Shown here piece after piece: positions 30,348 to 37,592 of a DNA stretch of 64,000 bases; the stretch's first letter is position 1; each line of letters starts with the position of its first letter. The notes beneath the pieces were generated by a model. The model was not told the origin of the DNA and did no database searches. It saw nothing but the letters and a program-made list of their open reading frames with translations. The position numbers were made by a program, and so were the translations under genes. This DNA comes from Chryseobacterium jejuense. GTDB lineage: Bacteria; Bacteroidota; Bacteroidia; Flavobacteriales; Weeksellaceae. The stretch spans positions 124,001 to 188,000 of the forward strand of contig NZ_JAGIPR010000001.1 in the NCBI RefSeq assembly GCF_017877355.1, given 5' to 3'.

Positions 30348-30513
30348 GCCTTTCTTAATAATAGATTTTACTAAATCTTAAAAACGATACATATATCCAC
30401 AATTTTAGTTGCAATTAAAATAAGTCAAGTTGGTGAAAAAAATTATTGAATTTTGTCTTTAATTAAATTCCTATTGAGCTAGACAAAGTTATGAGTTGAA
30501 TTTTTTTAGTGAG

Positions 30514-30575
30514 AAAAAGTACAATTCAAAGCGAAATTTGTCCATTGTTGAGTGCGAAGAATTAAGTCAACTTTG
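30514..30575 (+). promoter_or_regulatory. Promoter cassette P1 (cupin gene)
   Basis: Box at 30514-30536 with CAATTCAAAGCGAAA, 4 nt, TCCATTG at 30541-30547 (-33), exactly 20 nt, CAACTTTG at 30568-30575 (-7). Box, spacing and both promoter elements are repeated at P2 and P3. Confidence 0.75.
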
Positions 30576-30613
30576 GACTATCAAAAATAACAACAAATAA
30601 ATATTTAAAGAAC

Positions 30614-31003
30614 ATGAAAAATTTAATTTTAACCGTAGGATTATTTACAACATTAATATCCGGCACTGTACATGGGCAACAATCAGGGGTGAAGCGAACA
30701 GATCTTCAAAGACATACTATTGAAGCTGCTGGTTATGAAACTATTCAGGCACGCATAGACTTGGAGCCAGGCATATCTGTCGGTATGCATTCCCATCCCG
30801 GAGAAGAGGTTATTTATGTGCTAGAAGGTATATTCGAATACCAGTTAGAAGGTGAGAAGCCCGTTGTTTTGAAAGCTGGTGAAGTACTTTTTATTCCGGC
30901 CGGAAGAAATCATTCTGCAAAGAATATTGGTGAAGCTAAAGCCTCTGAGCTCGCAACTTATATCGTTAAGAAGGATCATTCTCTTCTCTTATTTAAGAAA
31001 TAA
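30614..31003 (+). CDS. Secreted cupin-domain protein
   Basis: 129 residues: signal peptide MKNLILTVGLFTTLISGTVHGQ, then a single small cupin barrel. The metal-type motif is GMHSHPGEEVIYVLEG followed by GEVLFIPAGRNHSAKN, giving the histidine/glutamate/histidine set of metal-binding cupins. The protein should be periplasmic or extracellular; its substrate is unknown. The signal peptide and promoter are nearly identical to those of the alpha/beta hydrolase at 33335. Transcription likely depends on promoter cassette P1. Confidence 0.85.
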   Translation: MKNLILTVGLFTTLISGTVHGQQSGVKRTDLQRHTIEAAGYETIQARIDLEPGISVGMHSHPGEEVIYVLEGIFEYQLEGEKPVVLKAGEVLFIPAGRNHSAKNIGEAKASELATYIVKKDHSLLLFKK

Positions 31004-31382
31004 TCTGATTTCACCAGAAACTCTTCGGCTGTTGAGATTAAAGTCCGACTTTATTTTCATTCGAAAAAGCTGTACTTAGTGTAGGGTAAGGTACTAACAA
31101 ATGTCTAATAAACTGTCACTAGGTCATTCTTAGCTTAATAAATTAAGAGCTATCCATTTTATTTTCATGTAAATTGGCAAATGGTCCGAAACAGACGGAA
31201 TAATCTCATGTTGCTTGGGCAGGTGGTTTACGGCATAAGAGCTGAAGGGTAGGATATTTAGAATCGAGAATTAAAATCTTAATAAACAAAGAAAAATCAG
31301 TTGCATTACTGCTTTTGAATTTCTTAATTTTACCAACAGAGGTTTAAAATAAGAAATTAACAACAATCTTTCAATCTTATAA
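31004..31382. other. Intergenic region before the AraC-type regulator
   Basis: About 380 bases. The last part has a promoter-like TTG at 31301-31303, 21 nt, TAATTTTA at 31325-31332. Cassette P1-P3 is not present here, so the regulator seems not to be under the same control. The middle has no frame longer than about 24 codons that I would support. Confidence 0.5.
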
Positions 31383-32207
31383 ATGATAAAGGAATTTTCA
31401 TACAAAAAATTTGGCAACTTAGAATTCAGTAAAACCTCAATTCAAAACGATTCTCTCACAACAATAAATGAGCATATCAAAGTCCTCTTTATTCCCAAAA
31501 ATGCTATTATTCAGGTGGATTTTCAGGAAATCGAAATGAATACTGACACATTGTTATTCATTAATCCGCATGTCATTTTAAAGCCCTGTGAAACTATCGG
31601 GGGCCAGCTGATGCATTTTAACCGGGATTTTTACTGTGTGGAAATCCATGATCAGGAAGTTGCCTGCGATGGTATTTTATATAATAATGTGTTTGAAATC
31701 CCTTTTATAAATCTAAACGAAGAACAGTCCGCTGAAATTCAAAAGATCATTAGAGATATCCAGTCTGAATTGAACGATGAAGATTCCGGTACGGAAGAGA
31801 TGCTAAGGACATTGTTAAAACTAATTATCCTGAAATCTACGCGCATCTGGAAAAAGCAGCATAAATTATCTGACAAAGAACAACAGGCTGATGTTCAGTT
31901 TTTAAGAAAATTCAGCAAATTGGTCGAACAACATTATAAAGCGCTTCATACCGTTGCCGATTATGCTGATTTGATGTGCGTTACCCCAAAAAATTTGAGT
32001 AAAAAAATAGGATTAGTAAGTAAAGATACTCCCAATGAAATTATAAAAAACCGTATTATGCTTGAAAGTAAACGTCTTTTAGCACATACACAACTGAGCG
32101 TTAAAGAAATTGCGTATAGTCTGAATTATGAAGACGATGCTTATTTTGTTCGCTTTTTTACAAAACATTCGGGGATGTCACCGACTAGTTTCAGAAAACA
32201 GTTCTAA
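31383..32207 (+). CDS. AraC-family transcriptional regulator, candidate controller of the P1-P3 promoters
   Basis: 274 residues. The N-terminal half (about 1-150) is a cupin-like sensor domain with KVLFIPKNAIIQVDFQEI and TLLFINPHVILKP. The C-terminal double helix-turn-helix, about 175-274, contains TVADYADLMCVTPKNLSKKIG and LSVKEIAYSLNYEDDAYFVRFFTKHSGMSPTSFRKQF. It lies between the cupin gene and two hydrolase genes, all with the same promoter cassette, which fits activation by this protein. A strong hairpin ends the gene. Confidence 0.9.
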   Translation: MIKEFSYKKFGNLEFSKTSIQNDSLTTINEHIKVLFIPKNAIIQVDFQEIEMNTDTLLFINPHVILKPCETIGGQLMHFNRDFYCVEIHDQEVACDGILYNNVFEIPFINLNEEQSAEIQKIIRDIQSELNDEDSGTEEMLRTLLKLIILKSTRIWKKQHKLSDKEQQADVQFLRKFSKLVEQHYKALHTVADYADLMCVTPKNLSKKIGLVSKDTPNEIIKNRIMLESKRLLAHTQLSVKEIAYSLNYEDDAYFVRFFTKHSGMSPTSFRKQF

Positions 32208-32235
32208 AAGTCCATTTTTGTATCTCATTCCCCAT

Positions 32236-32267
32236 AAAAAGCACAATCTGCAGATTGTGCTTTTTTT
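32236..32267 (+). terminator. Terminator of the AraC-type gene
   Basis: Perfect hairpin AAAAAGCACAATC / GATTGTGCTTTTT with TGCA loop and a T7 run. Confidence 0.88.
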
Positions 32268-32295
32268 CATGTATACCCCCAAAACTCAATGAGGC

Positions 32296-32357
32296 AAAAA
32301 GTGCAATTCAAAGCGAAAACTATCCATTGATGTGCCTTTAAAATTAACCCAACTTTG
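32296..32357 (+). promoter_or_regulatory. Promoter cassette P2 (first alpha/beta hydrolase)
   Basis: Box at 32296-32318 with CAATTCAAAGCGAAA, 4 nt, TCCATTG at 32323-32329, 20 nt, CAACTTTG at 32350-32357. The start codon is 41 nt downstream. Confidence 0.75.
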
Positions 32358-32398
32358 CCATAACAAAAAGAAAGTAATAACAATTAAATATTAAAGAC

Positions 32399-33220
32399 AT
32401 GAACAAGTTTACAGTAAAAGACGGAACAGAGATTTATTTCAAAGACCTAGGTGAAGGACAGCCGATATTCTTTCACCATGGATGGCCACTATCATCAGAT
32501 GACTGGGATACGCAAATGATGTTTTTTTTAGAAAAGGGCTTTAGGGTAATTTCTCACGATCGGAGAGGTCACGGAAGATCTACTCAAACATATAAGGGTA
32601 ATGATATGGACACTTATGCAGCAGATGTAGCAGAATTGGTTGAGTTTCTGGATCTGAAAGATACTATCCATGTAGGCCATTCAACCGGTGGTGGTGAAGC
32701 TATAAGATATGCGGCACAATATGGAAAAGGTAGGGTTGCCAAAGTAGTTTTGATAAGTGCGATTACTCCTTATATGATAGCCGATAAGAATAATGCGGAA
32801 GGAGTTCCCCTTGCAATCTTTGATGATATCCGGCATAATACACTTAACAACAGACAGCAATTCTATCAGGATCTTACAGTACCATTCTACGGCTACAATA
32901 GAGAAGGTGCTGTCATAAAAAAAGGAATACAGGACAACTGGTGGCGACAAGGAATGATGGGAGGTATAAAAGCACAATATGATTGTATCAAAGTATTTTC
33001 TGAAACGGATTTTACTGAAGATCTAAAAAGTGTAGAAATACCTGTTTTGGTTCTTCATGGTGACGACGATCAGATTGTACCTTATGCAACAACAGCTGTA
33101 AAAGCTGCAGAAATTTTAAAACATAGTACACTGATTATCTATCCAGGTTTCTCTCATGGTATGCCCACGATCAATGCTGATATAATTAATGAAGATATTT
33201 TATCATTTATAAAAGAATAA
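32399..33220 (+). CDS. Alpha/beta hydrolase of the non-heme chloroperoxidase/arylesterase type, cytoplasmic
   Basis: 273 residues, no signal peptide. The oxyanion segment is FFHHGWPLSSDDWD. The nucleophile is S95 in VGHSTGGGEA, a motif typical of bacterial cofactor-free haloperoxidases and related esterases. The aspartate lies in LHGDDDQIVPY and the histidine in GFSHGMPT. The natural activity is probably ester or lactone hydrolysis; perhydrolysis is a side reaction known in the family. It is expressed from cassette P2. Confidence 0.92.
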   Translation: MNKFTVKDGTEIYFKDLGEGQPIFFHHGWPLSSDDWDTQMMFFLEKGFRVISHDRRGHGRSTQTYKGNDMDTYAADVAELVEFLDLKDTIHVGHSTGGGEAIRYAAQYGKGRVAKVVLISAITPYMIADKNNAEGVPLAIFDDIRHNTLNNRQQFYQDLTVPFYGYNREGAVIKKGIQDNWWRQGMMGGIKAQYDCIKVFSETDFTEDLKSVEIPVLVLHGDDDQIVPYATTAVKAAEILKHSTLIIYPGFSHGMPTINADIINEDILSFIKE

Positions 33221-33233
33221 AAAATTAACTGGG

Positions 33234-33296
33234 TAAAAAATGCAATTCAAAGCGAAAGCCGTCCATTGTAATGCCTGAAGAATTAAGCCAACTTTG
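33234..33296 (+). promoter_or_regulatory. Promoter cassette P3 (secreted alpha/beta hydrolase)
   Basis: Box at 33234-33256 with CAATTCAAAGCGAAA, 4 nt, TCCATTG at 33262-33268, 20 nt, CAACTTTG at 33289-33296. It starts only 13 nt after the upstream gene. Similarity to P1 continues through the leader into the signal peptide codons. Confidence 0.75.
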
Positions 33297-33334
33297 TCGT
33301 ATCAAAAAATAACAACAATAAATATTTAAAGATC

Positions 33335-34243
33335 ATGAAAAATTTAATTTTAACAATCGGATTATTTACAACGCTGATATCCAGCTCTTTATTTTCACAA
33401 GCTAAAAGAACTCCGGCGTCCTTTGGAAGAGAAGAATATGTTGAAGTCGAAAAAAATGTTAGACTTCATGTAACCGATCTTGGTGAAGGTGAGCCTGTAG
33501 TTTTAATTCACGGATGGCCATTAAGCGATGCAATGTACGAATATCAATATGCTGATTTTATTCAAAAGGGTTACCGGGTGATTGGGATTACTTTAAGAGG
33601 ATTTGGCTTATCTGATAAACCTGGAGGCAAATATAATTATGATGTTTTTGCGGATGATATTAAGGTTGTTTTAGATAAATTGGAAATCAAGAATGCAACA
33701 ATCGGCGGATTTTCCATGGGAGGTGCAACGGTCATTCATTATGTAGCCAAATACAATGCGGCCCATGTTTCCAAAATGGCGCTGTTTGGAGCAGCAGCAC
33801 CTATCTGGACAAAACGTGCAGACTTTAATTATGGTTTATGGACCAAAGACGATGTTAACGGATTGATTAATCTTAACAATAAAAACCGTCCCGAGCTATT
33901 CGCCACATTTGGTAAAATCTTCCCGGCCAATGAAACCAGTGTATCTCCGGGGCATGGGGCATGGTTGGGAAATATTCAGGCTCAGGCATCACCTTATGCA
34001 ATGGCTGAAGGACTTAAAACTTTACGGGATAGTGACTTGCGCAATGATTTAAAGAAAATAACAATTCCAACACTGATCCTGCATGGTAAGTTAGATAAAA
34101 TCTGCTCATACGACCTTGCTGAACAAATGAAGGTTTTGCTTAAAAACTCAACTTTGGTTCCATTCGAAAAAAGCGGTCATGCACTTTTCATCGAAGAATT
34201 GGAAAAATTCAATGCTGAATTATTCAACTTCATTAAAAAATAA
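33335..34243 (+). CDS. Secreted alpha/beta hydrolase
   Basis: 302 residues with signal peptide MKNLILTIGLFTTLISSSLFSQ, so periplasmic or exported. The fold shows VVLIHGWPLSDAMYEY, the nucleophile S127 in GGFSMGGA, an aspartate in LILHGKLDKICS and a histidine in FEKSGHALFIEE. It is related to, but clearly diverged from, the cytoplasmic hydrolase encoded just upstream. Its first 17 residues match those of the cupin protein at 30614 except at one position. A terminator follows at 34254. Confidence 0.9.
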   Translation: MKNLILTIGLFTTLISSSLFSQAKRTPASFGREEYVEVEKNVRLHVTDLGEGEPVVLIHGWPLSDAMYEYQYADFIQKGYRVIGITLRGFGLSDKPGGKYNYDVFADDIKVVLDKLEIKNATIGGFSMGGATVIHYVAKYNAAHVSKMALFGAAAPIWTKRADFNYGLWTKDDVNGLINLNNKNRPELFATFGKIFPANETSVSPGHGAWLGNIQAQASPYAMAEGLKTLRDSDLRNDLKKITIPTLILHGKLDKICSYDLAEQMKVLLKNSTLVPFEKSGHALFIEELEKFNAELFNFIKK

Positions 34244-34253
34244 GTGAAACTAG

Positions 34254-34285
34254 AAAAGAGGTTAGCTGTCGCTAGCCTCTTTTTT
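34254..34285 (+). terminator. Terminator after the secreted hydrolase
   Basis: Hairpin AAGAGGTTAGC / GCTAGCCTCTT with TGTC loop (one G-T pair) and a T6 run. Confidence 0.85.
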
Positions 34286-34302
34286 AATCATAATCAATTA
34301 GA

Positions 34303-34743
34303 ATGAACAAATTTATATTATTTCTGTTTTCATTGACATTAGTGTCATGCAGTTTAAAAAAAGAAATTGGGGCGGTAAAGCATACCCACTTACCAAGACC
34401 AATAGGTCCCTATAGCCATTCAACCAATTATGGTGATTTGATATTTATATCGGGTCAAATTGGATTGGATCAAAAAACAAACAGCATAAAACCTGGCATT
34501 GAGGCGCAAACAGTTCAGATTTTTGAAAACTTAAAGGTAATCCTTGAGAATAATGATTCTGATTTTAACCATATTGTGAAGACAACTATTTTTATTACAG
34601 ATATGAAGCAGTTCGAAATGGTCAATAAAATATATAGCCGTTATTTCAATAATCGTTTTCCAGCGCGAAGTACCGTTGAAGTGATTTCATTACCCAAAAA
34701 TGCAAGTATAGAAATAGAATGTATTGCCGTTAAAAATAAATAG
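34303..34743 (+). CDS. Exported RidA-family (YjgF/YER057c) lipoprotein
   Basis: 146 residues. The mature domain is RidA-like: PRPIGPYSHSTNYGDLIFISGQIG, then R122 in FPARSTVEV, the arginine that binds the carboxylate of imine substrates, and a C-terminal IEIECIAV strand. Unusually it begins with a lipoprotein signal, SLTLVSC with C16, so it would sit in the periplasm or outer membrane. RidA proteins normally deaminate reactive enamines and imines in the cytoplasm. It follows the hydrolase after a terminator and lacks cassette P1-P3. Confidence 0.88.
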   Translation: MNKFILFLFSLTLVSCSLKKEIGAVKHTHLPRPIGPYSHSTNYGDLIFISGQIGLDQKTNSIKPGIEAQTVQIFENLKVILENNDSDFNHIVKTTIFITDMKQFEMVNKIYSRYFNNRFPARSTVEVISLPKNASIEIECIAVKNK

Positions 34744-34832
34744 TATAAATAGATCATATTTAGCACAAAATACTGTAATTAAAAATTGCCTGTCTGCAAC
34801 ATCTTTATTAATATTGTGTTAATATGTTAACA

Positions 34833-37592
34833 ATGAAATTTTTGAAAGTTTTCGGTTTTCCTAAGGCTTATAGAATGTTATTTCTTCTGTTTTTCCTTGT
34901 TTTTTTTTCTTGTAAAGAATCTCAGAAAACGTCAGACAAAATTAGTATCGGATTTTCGCAGGGCCTGGGAAATCATCCCTGGAGATTGGCAATGAACCAT
35001 TCTATGGAGATACAGGCATCGCTTCATTCCGAAGTAGAGCTGAATATACAGAAAGCAGAAAATTCTGTTAATAAACAGGTTAAGGATATACAAAAAATGA
35101 TTGATCGTAAGGTGGATGTGATTATCATCTCACCCATTGACCCCGAATCCTTAGTTCCTGTGGTGGAAAAAGCGGCTGCCAAAAATATTCCGGTTATTTT
35201 GCTTGACAGGAAGATCAATTCAGAAAAATATACAACCTACATAGGCGCCGACAACTTGGAGATTGGTAAAGAAGCGGCCAATTACATTCTTTCAGATTCC
35301 AAAAATTATAAAAAAATAATTGAAATAAAAGGCGATGACCAATCTTCTCCAACCATAGAAAGAAGTCTCGGCTTTCAGGAAATCATTAAAAACAATCCCA
35401 ATACAAAGCTGATAAAAACCTTTAAAGGTCTTCCGGCAGACGCTTTCAGGAGAACGCTGGATTCCTTGGGAAATCAAAGTCTGTATGTTTTTGCTTTTAA
35501 CGATGAGCTTGCGGCCATTGCGTGGCAGGCTGCACGGAATAAAGGGTTGGAAAATCAAATCAAATTTATCGGAGTTGACGGACTGAATACAAAAGACGGC
35601 GGAATACAAATGGTGTTAGATGGAAAGCTGAATGCTACTTTACTGTATCCGACTGGTGGAGCAGAAGCGATAGAGACTGCGATTAAGATTCATAACGGTG
35701 TTGCTGTTCCCAAAAGAATTAAGCTCAGCACAACGATCATTGACCGGATGAATGCAGAAATTATGCGCAATCAGTTTGATAAAATCATTGAACAGCAGGG
35801 TGTTATAGAAAGTCAGGTACAGGCGGTTAAAAAACAGATTGAGCTATATTCTTCTCAAAAAGAATTGTTCCGATGGTCTATCATATTGTTGATATTGATG
35901 TTTTGCCTGGTTGCCTATTCTATTTACCTTATTTATGCAATCAAGATAAAAAATAAGCAGCTTATGCTTACCAATGAGAGAATTACTATTCAAAGAAATC
36001 AGATTGAAACCATTGCCAATGAGTTGAAAGACAGCAATGAAGCGAGAGTTAATTTTTTTACGGGATTGTCTCACGAATTTAAAACACCCATTACGCTTAT
36101 TCTCAGTTCATTGGAGTCTTTGATGGATTCAGGCAAATCCAAAGGCACAAAACCAACATATGAGCTGGAGCTGATCAATAAAAACTCCAACAGATTATTA
36201 CGATTGGTGGATAACTTATTGGACTTTAGGAAAATAGAAAATCAAACTTTTAACCTAAGAGTTTCCAAGACGAATATTTACGATTTTACTTATTCAATTT
36301 TTCGTGATTTTGAAAATGAAGCTAAGAAAAGAAATATCAAATTCGAAATTCATTCACAGAATAAAAATCTTGAGCTCTACATCGACAGAAACCTGATGGA
36401 TAAAGTCTATTTCAACCTTTTGTCCAATGCTTTCAAATTTACGCCGGACAATGGAAAGATTGAAATTACGATTCAGGAAAAAGGAAATCAGGCAGTCATC
36501 AGCTTCAGAGATAATGGAATCGGAATACCTGAAAAAGAGATCAGCAACGTCTTTGAAGCGTATTTCAAAGGTTCCAACAACAGAAAAAACAGTTCAGGAA
36601 TCGGGCTTCATCTTAGCAGGCAGTTCATTGGGCTTCATCTTGGGAAGATAGAAGTGAGCTCTTTTCAGGGAACCGAGTTTGTCATCAGTCTTTATAAGGG
36701 AAACAAGCATTTCAACGAAGACCAAATGGTAAAAGAGCTCAGTCTTGCAGATGCCGAAAGTCTGGCAAAAGATGCTGTTTTTGCAGGATTGGAAGAAGAG
36801 ACAATTACCCAAAATCAGGAATCTCAGGGCGAACGTTATTCGCTGCTTTTGGTCGAAGATAATTCGGATTTGTCTTTCTTTTTAAGCAAAAAACTTAATA
36901 ATGAGTTTGAGGTGATGGTTTCTGACGGTACGGATGCGATTGATAAGGCTTTGAGCGAAATTCCGGATGTTATTGTCTGTGACGTCAATCTTCCGGATAA
37001 AAATGGTTTTGAAATCTGTGAAATTCTAAAAAATGACCTTCGTACATCACATATTCCGGTCATTCTTCTGACAGCTCTGGACAATAAAGAATCTTATCTG
37101 CAGGGGCTGAAATCCGGCGTTGATCTTTATCTCACAAAACCTTTCAGTTACCCGATTCTGATACAGTCGCTGCGTGCACTGCTTTACAACCGCGAAAAAC
37201 TACGATATTACTATACAAACAATATCGGCAGAATTGCGGACAGCAAGTCGTTTGGAAGCATAGAACAAACCTTTGTGAACAATCTGAATCACTTGATCAA
37301 AACCAATATCGACAATCCTGATTTTTCAGTAGAAAATCTTGCAGACCTGCTTAATATTTCCAGAATTCAGCTTTATAGAAAGATAAAAGCGATGTTTGAT
37401 GTAAACGTGAGCGATTATATCAACAATTTCCGTCTGGAACAGGCCAAATCAATGCTGCAAAATCCTGAACTGACGATTTCTGAGATTGCATACAAAACAG
37501 GTTTTTCTTCCCCGAATTATTTTTCCACTGTTTTTAAAAATAAATTTGGCATATCCCCAAATGCCTTTAGAAAGTCTGCAGGGAAGGAGTGA
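34833..37592 (+). CDS. Hybrid two-component system sensor/regulator with periplasmic sugar-binding domain (fructan type)
   Basis: A single-chain sensor, kinase and transcription factor. Residue numbers here count from the earlier ATG at 34824. A hydrophobic start ends in FFSC (C30). A type I periplasmic-binding-protein domain spans about 38-305 (KISIGFSQGLGNHPWRLAM, DVIIISPIDPESLVP, PVILLDRKI), like the fructose-binding sensor of the Bacteroides levan locus. A membrane helix spans about 350-373. HisKA has H417 in LSHEFKTP; the ATPase has DNGIGIP and SGIGLHLSRQF. The receiver has D720 in VIVCDVNLPDKNG, and an AraC-type double HTH ends the protein. Starts at 34824, 34833 and 34875 are possible; a promoter-like TAATATTG at 34809-34816 disfavours 34824. 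The ligand is probably fructose or a fructan oligosaccharide, from context. Confidence 0.93.
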   Translation: MKFLKVFGFPKAYRMLFLLFFLVFFSCKESQKTSDKISIGFSQGLGNHPWRLAMNHSMEIQASLHSEVELNIQKAENSVNKQVKDIQKMIDRKVDVIIISPIDPESLVPVVEKAAAKNIPVILLDRKINSEKYTTYIGADNLEIGKEAANYILSDSKNYKKIIEIKGDDQSSPTIERSLGFQEIIKNNPNTKLIKTFKGLPADAFRRTLDSLGNQSLYVFAFNDELAAIAWQAARNKGLENQIKFIGVDGLNTKDGGIQMVLDGKLNATLLYPTGGAEAIETAIKIHNGVAVPKRIKLSTTIIDRMNAEIMRNQFDKIIEQQGVIESQVQAVKKQIELYSSQKELFRWSIILLILMFCLVAYSIYLIYAIKIKNKQLMLTNERITIQRNQIETIANELKDSNEARVNFFTGLSHEFKTPITLILSSLESLMDSGKSKGTKPTYELELINKNSNRLLRLVDNLLDFRKIENQTFNLRVSKTNIYDFTYSIFRDFENEAKKRNIKFEIHSQNKNLELYIDRNLMDKVYFNLLSNAFKFTPDNGKIEITIQEKGNQAVISFRDNGIGIPEKEISNVFEAYFKGSNNRKNSSGIGLHLSRQFIGLHLGKIEVSSFQGTEFVISLYKGNKHFNEDQMVKELSLADAESLAKDAVFAGLEEETITQNQESQGERYSLLLVEDNSDLSFFLSKKLNNEFEVMVSDGTDAIDKALSEIPDVIVCDVNLPDKNGFEICEILKNDLRTSHIPVILLTALDNKESYLQGLKSGVDLYLTKPFSYPILIQSLRALLYNREKLRYYYTNNIGRIADSKSFGSIEQTFVNNLNHLIKTNIDNPDFSVENLADLLNISRIQLYRKIKAMFDVNVSDYINNFRLEQAKSMLQNPELTISEIAYKTGFSSPNYFSTVFKNKFGISPNAFRKSAGKE

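What the first reader, a model, noticed from the sequence alone, without database searches (positions are those of the whole stretch)
30514..33296. Three near-identical promoter cassettes define an uncharacterised AraC-controlled regulon
At 30514-30575, 32296-32357 and 33234-33296 the same 23-bp box ending in CAATTCAAAGCGAAA is followed by exactly 4 nt, TCCATTG, exactly 20 nt and CAACTTTG. TTG and CAACTTTG fit the Bacteroidota -33/-7 elements. The box therefore directly abuts the -33 element, a standard activator position. The three genes encode a secreted cupin, a cytoplasmic alpha/beta hydrolase and a secreted alpha/beta hydrolase, interleaved with one AraC-type regulator gene that lacks the cassette. 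It looks like a small module that meets an unknown ester-, lactone- or oxidant-type compound on both sides of the inner membrane.
Basis: partly seen in the sequence, partly recalled or inferred. Interest (0 to 1): 0.78.

Follow-up and report, generated by a model that had tools for sequence, protein, structure and literature searches.

The report
AraC-controlled stress regulon with shared promoters
Three neighbouring genes of a Chryseobacterium share one promoter design that recurs beside the same regulator gene in many Bacteroidota, marking a small regulon that probably answers oxidising or peroxide-type chemical stress.

Summary
Three exact cassettes occur and no others with up to 3 mismatches in the 5.35 Mb genome; by profile they score 57-69 bits, the next site 16.6. 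Of 40 orthologous regulator loci from named Bacteroidota genomes, 38 carry one to three cassettes. In the genus 8 of 8 sampled genomes with the regulator carry cassettes, 1 of 140 without. Orthologues of the cytoplasmic hydrolase have it in 7 of 7 fetched loci, 70-73% paralogues in 0 of 23. One correction: box and TCCATTG form one ~37-bp operator, a degenerate direct repeat in 21-bp register whose proximal half contains the -33 TTG: a class-II-like AraC layout. Targets elsewhere include Dps-like ferritins (8 of 69 genes) and, unlinked, an Ohr peroxiredoxin. The sensor domain has an invariant C-x3-H-D-x-E-x2-C-D loop, kept in sister AraC proteins, of which 7 of 12 examined lie beside OsmC genes. 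Best reading: a Cys-based, oxidant-responsive activator; the stimulus is inferred. Against: three genomes have a cassette but no close regulator.

The parts
30511..30547 (+). Operator 1 (two half-sites in 21-bp register; proximal half contains the -33 TTG at 30545-30547), upstream of the cupin gene
   Evidence: 56.8 bits for the cassette
30568..30575 (+). -7 element CAACTTTG of promoter 1; predicted transcription start A30580 (if the -7 box spans -12 to -5, as in PMC9723704)
30614..31003 (+). Cupin (Cupin_2) protein with signal-peptide-like N-terminus, 129 aa
31383..32207 (+). AraC-type regulator, 274 aa; cupin-like N-domain with invariant C85-x3-H89-D90-x-E92-x2-C95-D96; C-terminal double HTH; no cassette of its own
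32236..32265 (+). Strong hairpin with T-run after the regulator gene (likely terminator), separating it from promoter 2
   Evidence: -15.3 kcal/mol, z -5.27; not reported by the consensus scan
32293..32329 (+). Operator 2 (-33 TTG at 32327-32329), upstream of the cytoplasmic hydrolase
   Evidence: 69.2 bits for the cassette
32350..32357 (+). -7 element CAACTTTG of promoter 2; predicted start A32362
32399..33220 (+). Cytoplasmic alpha/beta hydrolase of the cofactor-free chloroperoxidase/arylesterase family, 273 aa
   Evidence: 366.8 bits to chloroperoxidase L, 1a88
33232..33268 (+). Operator 3 (-33 TTG at 33266-33268), upstream of the secreted hydrolase
   Evidence: 62.7 bits for the cassette
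33289..33296 (+). -7 element CAACTTTG of promoter 3; predicted start A33301
33335..34243 (+). Alpha/beta hydrolase with signal-peptide-like N-terminus, 302 aa; promoter, leader and first ~20 codons similar to those of the cupin gene
34251..34286 (+). Strong hairpin with T-run (likely terminator) between the hydrolase and the RidA-like gene
   Evidence: -22.4 kcal/mol for the 56-nt stretch, z -6.56; not reported by the consensus scan
34303..34743 (+). RidA/YjgF-family protein with lipoprotein-like N-terminus (by eye), no cassette; cluster found in 21 of 41 loci; regulon membership uncertain

Best explanation
The three cassettes are the high-scoring promoter set, in this genome, of the AraC-type regulator at 31383-32207. 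A dimer binds a ~37-bp operator, GGnAAAAAGTGCAATTCAAAGCGAAAnnnnTCCATTG, as two half-sites in direct orientation with 21-bp register. The promoter-proximal half-site contains the -33 TTG, so the protein sits against RNA polymerase like a class II AraC activator. The -7 element is conserved as a sub-optimal CAnnTTTG, which should make transcription depend on the activator. The signal is proposed to be a thiol-reactive oxidant (organic hydroperoxide, peracid or hypohalite type), read through the invariant Cys85/Cys95 loop in the cupin-like N-domain. Induction yields a cytoplasmic haloperoxidase/arylesterase-type hydrolase, a secreted relative and a secreted cupin; in other species also a Dps-like ferritin and Ohr peroxiredoxin. 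Shown: anatomy, conservation, linkage and co-occurrence. Inferred: binding, activation, redox sensing and stimulus.
For: Cassette-regulator tie: 38 of 40 orthologous loci carry at least one cassette; 70 fuzzy hits against 0 in reversed sequence. In the genus 8 of 8 regulator-positive genomes versus 1 of 140 others. Hydrolase orthologues 7 of 7 versus 0 of 23 paralogues among 30 loci fetched. Own genome: 3 sites at 56.8-69.2 bits, next 16.6 (150 of 3154 candidates scored). Operator form: PWM self-similarity peaks at offset 21; 0 of 2000 column permutations reach it at that offset, 15 of 2000 at some offset 8-24. AraC-type HTCS operators in Bacteroides average 21 bp between tandem sites (PMC3878776, passages). 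Fold: HTH domain Z 14.4, 12.3 and 12.2 to MarA, SoxS and AraC DNA-binding domains; N-domain Z 14.0 to RhaR and 10.3 to AraC. Stress theme: 8 of 69 distinct target genes are Dps-like ferritins, all 8 with Pfam Ferritin above cut-off. An unlinked cassette in G112, which has the regulator, precedes an Ohr-family gene (TIGR03561, 151.1 bits, cut-off 88.85). Sister AraC proteins (41-47%) keep the loop; 7 of 12 sister loci examined have an OsmC-family gene next to them, all 7 above the TIGR03562 cut-off. Precedent: EstR controls an organic-hydroperoxide-inducible esterase by Cys oxidation (PMC5201249, abstract and passages); RclR is an HOCl-responsive AraC protein with two oxidised Cys (PMC7464077, passages).
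Against: No expression or binding data. Three genomes (G146, G361, G454) have a cassette but no close regulator, only 43-45% sister proteins; in G361 the cassette is 165 bp from a contig end. In the phylum sample only 1 of 3 cassette genomes has the regulator (few candidates scored per genome). Two loci have a regulator gene without a cassette: L032 intact, L055 degraded. The direct repeat is weak in single sites: 7, 8 and 7 of 14 positions in the window's three. The Cys loop is modelled at pLDDT under 50, so no disulfide geometry is supported. A similar loop occurs in more distant AraC proteins beside other kinds of genes, so it need not be an oxidant sensor. 5 of 12 sister loci have no OsmC gene beside them. 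In the EstR precedent, losing the esterase raised resistance to organic hydroperoxides, so such a hydrolase need not protect. Dps-like proteins score below the NCBIfam Dps cut-off (L034: 87.5 against 114). No Dps or Ohr gene is linked in the window.
Confidence: 0.55

Rival explanations
1. The regulator binds the operator as described, but senses a small organic ligand (ester, lactone, aromatic or lipid-derived) in its cupin-like pocket, and the hydrolases degrade that compound; the Cys/His/Glu loop is structural or metal-binding.
For: N-domain fold is that of ligand-binding AraC proteins (RhaR, AraC; ToxT entries with fatty acid). The targets are hydrolases whose family includes esterases and a gamma-lactamase. 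A similar loop also occurs in distant AraC relatives beside other genes.
Against: Dps-like and Ohr genes under the same cassette fit oxidant defence better than catabolism; by eye no transporter or catabolic pathway was recognised among the clusters found in five or more loci.
Confidence: 0.3
2. A different or additional regulator reads the cassette, for example the 43-45% sister AraC proteins, and linkage to this gene is partly historical.
For: Three cassette-bearing genomes lack a close orthologue but have sister proteins; weak operator-like sites (19-27 bits) lie near OsmC, DsrE-like and OYE-like genes.
Against: 8 of 8 versus 1 of 140 association in the genus; recognition-helix residues of the sisters differ by eye; in the window's genome the next AraC-like match scores 114 bits (30%) against 604.
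Confidence: 0.11
3. The cassettes look alike mainly because promoter, leader and signal peptide were copied between neighbouring genes recently, not because a regulator constrains them.
For: Promoter, leader and signal-peptide codons of the cupin and secreted-hydrolase genes are strongly similar.
Against: The operator is conserved across many genera and in front of unrelated genes (Dps-like, Ohr, cytoplasmic hydrolase): 22 of 34 positions (-8 to 25) hold 1.48 bits or more, while spacer positions 29-37 hold 0.01-0.65; spacer positions 38-42 are again partly conserved (0.56-1.65). Duplication may explain the leader, not the operator.
Confidence: 0.04

Closest known systems
AraC-type hybrid two-component operators of Bacteroides (PMC3878776, passages)
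   Same: Direct-repeat operator, about 21 bp between tandem sites, Bacteroidota, AraC-type DNA-binding domain
   Different: Those belong to membrane-bound sensors of glycan loci; this is a one-component regulator of stress-type enzymes
RclR of Escherichia coli / Pseudomonas aeruginosa (PMC7464077 and PMC13423671, passages)
   Same: AraC family, two Cys proposed for oxidant sensing, small regulon at its own locus
   Different: RclR Cys are at 21 and 89 and targets are rclABC or rclX; here the Cys are at 85 and 95 in one loop and the targets are hydrolases, cupin, Dps-like ferritin, Ohr
EstR-EstC of Agrobacterium (PMC5201249, abstract and passages) and OhrR-Ohr (listing only)
   Same: Cys-based regulator adjacent to an esterase gene or to Ohr; organic hydroperoxides as inducers
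   Different: MarR-family repressors, not AraC-type activators
Cofactor-free chloroperoxidase / arylesterase (perhydrolase) family: chloroperoxidase L and F, arylesterase
   Same: The cytoplasmic hydrolase aligns over nearly its full length, including the GHSTGGG nucleophile motif
   Different: Natural substrate and regulation here unknown; the secreted relative is more distant (best 232.3 bits to 5h3h)
E. coli AraC at araI1/araI2 (half-site sequence recalled; PMC6018408 passages for the site names)
   Same: Tandem half-sites next to the promoter; TCCAT-like B-box (recalled)
   Different: No distal looping site was looked for or seen; no sugar genes in the module

Membership tests
AraC/XylS family regulator | C-terminal double helix-turn-helix DNA-binding domain | tested here: met
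   HTH_18 E 2.7e-17, 63.2 bits against cut-off 33.6; Z 14.4, 12.3, 12.2 to MarA, SoxS, AraC DNA-binding domains
AraC/XylS family regulator | Cupin-like N-terminal regulatory/dimerisation domain | tested here: met
   Z 14.0 to RhaR (rmsd 2.6 over 142) and 10.3 to AraC (rmsd 3.1 over 134) regulatory domains; model mean pLDDT 76
AraC/XylS family regulator | Directly repeated half-sites, proximal one overlapping the upstream promoter element (class II layout) | tested here: met
   PWM self-similarity peak at offset 21; TTG lies inside the proximal half. Weak in single sites
AraC/XylS family regulator | Activates its target promoters | not testable with these tools
   No expression data; the conserved sub-optimal -7 element is only suggestive
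RclR | Controls rclA/rclB/rclC-type genes | tested here: not met
   Pfam matches of six window genes show cupin, AraC, hydrolases, RidA and a hybrid sensor; none is a flavoprotein disulfide reductase. Genes elsewhere in the genome were not tested
RclR | Oxidation of two Cys (21 and 89 in RclR) activates the protein | tested here: inconclusive
   Two invariant Cys exist but at 85 and 95; no alignment to RclR was made and redox chemistry cannot be tested
OhrR/EstR (MarR family) | MarR-type winged-helix repressor | tested here: not met
   The regulator is AraC-type
Cofactor-free haloperoxidase/arylesterase family (cytoplasmic hydrolase) | Ser-Asp-His triad in an alpha/beta hydrolase fold, full-length homology | tested here: met
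   366.8 bits to chloroperoxidase L over residues 4-272; GHSTGGG, the DDQ Asp region and the HG His region align (triad roles recalled)
Cofactor-free haloperoxidase/arylesterase family (cytoplasmic hydrolase) | Perhydrolase/halogenation or esterase activity | not testable with these tools
   Needs an enzyme assay
Bacteroidota sigma-A promoter | TAnnTTTG -7 element with upstream TTG | tested here: inconclusive
   CAnnTTTG: TTTG and A at position 2 conserved, first base C in 57 of 67 and T in 0 of 67; consensus from PMC9723704; TTG and its spacing recalled

The most novel reading that the evidence does not exclude
A Bacteroidota AraC subfamily marked by a C-x3-H-x2-E-x2-C loop is a one-component oxidant sensor, possibly with a metal bound to the loop, and a functional counterpart of OhrR, RclR or OxyR; its regulon (haloperoxidase-type hydrolases, cupin, Dps-like ferritin, Ohr, perhaps RidA) moves between orders as a unit with a portable promoter cassette, so peroxide or hypohalite defence in this phylum has a sensor class that has gone unrecognised.
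Probability: 0.28. Interest if true: 0.68.

Novelty: new member of a known kind. Interest (0 to 1): 0.52.

Why it matters
If true it names a regulator, its operator and its targets for a stress response in a phylum whose one-component regulators are little studied (my judgement), and it gives a physiological setting (induced defence) for a much-used biocatalyst family, the cofactor-free chloroperoxidases/perhydrolases. The operator sequence makes the regulon searchable in any Bacteroidota genome, and the two invariant Cys make redox sensing testable by single substitutions.

Tried and rejected
Tried: box and -33 as separate abutting elements; rejected because TCCATTG is as conserved as the box and matches the upstream half at 21-bp register. 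Offset 20 was my first alignment; the PWM prefers 21 (0.73 against 0.56). Recent duplication as sole cause of cassette similarity; rejected for the operator, kept for the leader and signal peptide. RidA-like gene as a target of cassette 3 by read-through; left uncertain because of the hairpin at 34251-34286. OsmC in the window's genome as a further target: no operator found upstream. Weak sites (19-27 bits) near OYE-like, DsrE-like and OsmC genes may be operators of other AraC proteins; not pursued. The consensus promoter/terminator scan gave near-chance numbers (26 against 19.9 and 3 against 3.0), missed the two strong hairpins, and was not relied on. Literature: the listings of searches showed no paper on this regulon; the library lacks most subscription journals.

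Rows dropped and limits: one of 70 fuzzy hits (L046, minus strand) was judged spurious; 67 unique of 72 cassettes entered the matrix; 62 sequences entered alignment A1 and profile R1. 71 cassettes with a following gene are 69 distinct genes, because in L036 and L039 two cassettes precede one gene; one cassette (L040) had no gene before its contig end. L034/L035, L036/L039 and L030/L031 are near-identical pairs. Genome searches scored only part of their candidates (for example 17 per genome, 14, 7). In one search, L199 had only 76 nt of upstream sequence.
Full report
OBSERVATION. The three cassettes are exactly as described, apart from a one-base slip at the third (33235, not 33234). The full pattern with up to 3 mismatches occurs 3 times in the 5,345,646-base genome, always without mismatch, with 0 in the reversed control. 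The genome is a Chryseobacterium by inference: genus member G004 has the same three cassette sequences as the locus of C. elymi (L020).

CONSERVATION AND LINKAGE. A scan of named genomes with the regulator protein returned 40 loci (Chryseobacterium, Epilithonimonas, Sphingobacterium, Pedobacter, Flavobacterium, Runella, Algoriphagus, Allomuricauda, a Chitinophaga MAG and others) at 62-94% identity. A fuzzy operator search found 70 hits in these loci and 0 in the reversed sequence; one minus-strand hit was dropped. 38 of 40 loci have at least one cassette (15 with one, 15 with two, 8 with three). The two without are L032 (intact regulator; no hydrolase of the module in the fetched stretch) and L055 (degraded regulator, 12 stops). 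None lies within 400 bp upstream of the regulator gene. Counting the window, the cassettes precede 69 distinct genes: 30 cytoplasmic hydrolases, 26 secreted hydrolases, 8 Dps-like proteins and 5 cupins. All 8 Dps-like proteins match Pfam Ferritin above cut-off; the one tested against NCBIfam (L034) has Dps as best match but below its cut-off (87.5 against 114 bits).

CO-OCCURRENCE. In 148 genomes of the genus, 9 have the cassette pattern and 8 have the regulator at 82-100% identity; all 8 are among the 9. The ninth, G146, has only a 43% relative, and its cassette precedes an Ohr-family gene followed by a hydrolase. In G112, which has the regulator, the same kind of operon, about 1.2 Mb from the regulator, also carries the cassette (54.4 bits), and its first gene is Ohr-family (151.1 bits, cut-off 88.85). 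In 345 genomes of the phylum the profile found 3 (the window's own, G361, G454), while the regulator was found only in the window's own. With all candidates scored, G361 and G454 have relatives at 45 and 44% only. In G361 the cassette precedes the secreted hydrolase and lies 165 bp from the contig end; in G454 it precedes the cytoplasmic hydrolase. So 3 of the 11 genomes with a high-scoring cassette (48.9 bits or more) lack a close regulator: a real exception, perhaps read by sister proteins or orphaned.

SPECIFICITY CONTROL. The cytoplasmic hydrolase family is nearly universal in the genus (133 of 148 genomes). Of 30 loci fetched, the 7 orthologues at 90-100% all have the cassette 89-95 nt before the start codon; of 23 paralogues at 70-73% none does (a 4-mismatch hit in L188 lacks TCCATTG; L199 has only 76 nt upstream). 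The remaining paralogues were not fetched. The cassette therefore follows the regulator module, not the enzyme family.

OPERATOR ANATOMY. From 67 unique sites the consensus is GGnAAAAAGTGCAATTCAAAGCGAAAnnnnTCCATTG-N20-CAACTTTG, followed by a conserved start region around TATCAAA. The matrix resembles itself best at an offset of 21 (0.73), next 20 (0.56); in 2000 column permutations none reached the value at offset 21, and 15 reached it at some offset between 8 and 24. In consensus form GnAAAAAGTGCAAT is repeated as GAAAACCGTCCATT, about 10 of 14 positions alike; single sites are weaker (7, 8 and 7 of 14 in the window). A 21-bp distance is the mean reported for AraC-type HTCS operators in Bacteroides (PMC3878776, passages). 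AraC-family proteins are named among the few that bind direct repeats (PMC9723621, abstract and passages). The -33 TTG is the end of the proximal half-site. The -7 box is CAnnTTTG (first base C 57, G 8, A 2, T 0 of 67), away from the TAnnTTTG consensus of F. psychrophilum (PMC9723704, passages). If, as that paper places it, the -7 box spans -12 to -5, transcripts start at A30580, A32362 and A33301, giving leaders of 34-37 nt.

TRANSCRIPT UNITS. Strong hairpins follow the regulator (32236-32265) and the secreted hydrolase (34251-34286). Between the cupin gene and the regulator, 45-nt windows reach at most -9.6 kcal/mol against -15.3 and -22.0 for those two hairpins, so read-through from promoter 1 could feed the regulator; this is inference.

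REGULATOR. HTH_18 (63.2 bits, cut-off 33.6) and HTH_AraC (26.6, at cut-off) match. The model (mean pLDDT 76) aligns with MarA, SoxS and AraC DNA-binding domains and with RhaR and AraC regulatory domains. Cys85 and Cys95 are present in 41 of 41 aligned sequences, the degraded L055 included. C85, H89, D90, E92, C95, D96 and G97 are invariant in 34 of those sequences plus 6 sister proteins. Residues 86-99 are modelled with pLDDT under 50. Of 21 further AraC-like matches in the genome 19 were examined; one (L121, 31%) shows C-x3-H-x2-E-x2-C in an alignment. Of 12 sister loci looked at, 7 have an OsmC-family gene next to the regulator (L070, L072, L074, L076, L143, L144, L145; all above cut-off), one a second secreted hydrolase (L146, 59% to the window's), and four other genes (L069, L071, L078, L142). 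More distant proteins with a similar loop lie beside other genes, so the loop is not proof of oxidant sensing.

TARGET PROTEINS. The cytoplasmic hydrolase is a nearly full-length relative of chloroperoxidase L (366.8 bits) and arylesterases; the secreted one matches 5h3h (232.3 bits) and arylesterases. The cupin's nearest solved relatives are weak (best 44 bits). A RidA-family gene belongs to the neighbourhood in 21 of 41 loci clustered; RidA is described as an HOCl-activated chaperone in E. coli (PMC7464077, passages). In 12 loci there is also an HxlR-like gene (by eye) whose only NCBIfam matches in the one copy tested, below cut-off, are the redox regulators RrpA and RrpB. Together with Dps-like and Ohr targets this favours an oxidant stimulus, about two to one over a plain small-molecule ligand in my judgement. 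A caution from the precedent: the estC mutant was more, not less, resistant to organic hydroperoxides (PMC5201249, passages).

MOBILITY. Regulators of three Sphingobacterium loci (85, 86, 88%) are as close to the window's as those of two other Chryseobacterium (86%), although two further Sphingobacterium are at 81 and 75%; flanking genes differ between many loci. That suggests horizontal movement of the module with its cassettes between orders (taxonomic rank recalled); no tree was built.

VERDICT. A real, conserved regulon; a new member of a known kind (AraC-type one-component regulation), with an unproven but testable redox-sensor reading. Confidence that this regulator is the cognate one is about 0.87; that the stimulus is an oxidant or peroxide about 0.55-0.6.

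Noticed in passing
window 30510-30690 and 33231-33411: Promoter, leader and first ~20 codons (signal peptide) of the cupin and secreted-hydrolase genes are strongly similar although the mature proteins are of different families: a promoter-plus-secretion-signal unit seems to have been copied between genes.
   Followed up: partly
window 34303-34743: A RidA/YjgF-family protein with a lipoprotein-like N-terminus (by eye), unusual for a family usually described as cytosolic (recalled); its cluster is in 21 of 41 loci.
   Followed up: partly
L055 6001-6813; L068; G069 contig 47: A degraded regulator copy (63% identity, the same counts of 12 stop codons in G069 and G143, and 12 in L055 of C. cucumeris) lies in a locus with genes that look like nitric-oxide reductase and RIC/DUF542 proteins (by eye).
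   Followed up: no
L115 8262-9456 and L116 7774-8968: Cassette in front of an Ohr-hydrolase operon: without a close regulator in G146, unlinked to the regulator in G112.
   Followed up: partly
L099, L100, L101, L111, L114: Weaker operator-like sites (19-27 bits) near OYE-like, DsrE-like and OsmC genes in other Chryseobacterium: possibly related operators of other AraC proteins.
   Followed up: partly
window 34824-37592: Hybrid two-component protein with a periplasmic sugar-binding-type domain, kinase, receiver and AraC-type HTH directly downstream of the module.
   Followed up: no
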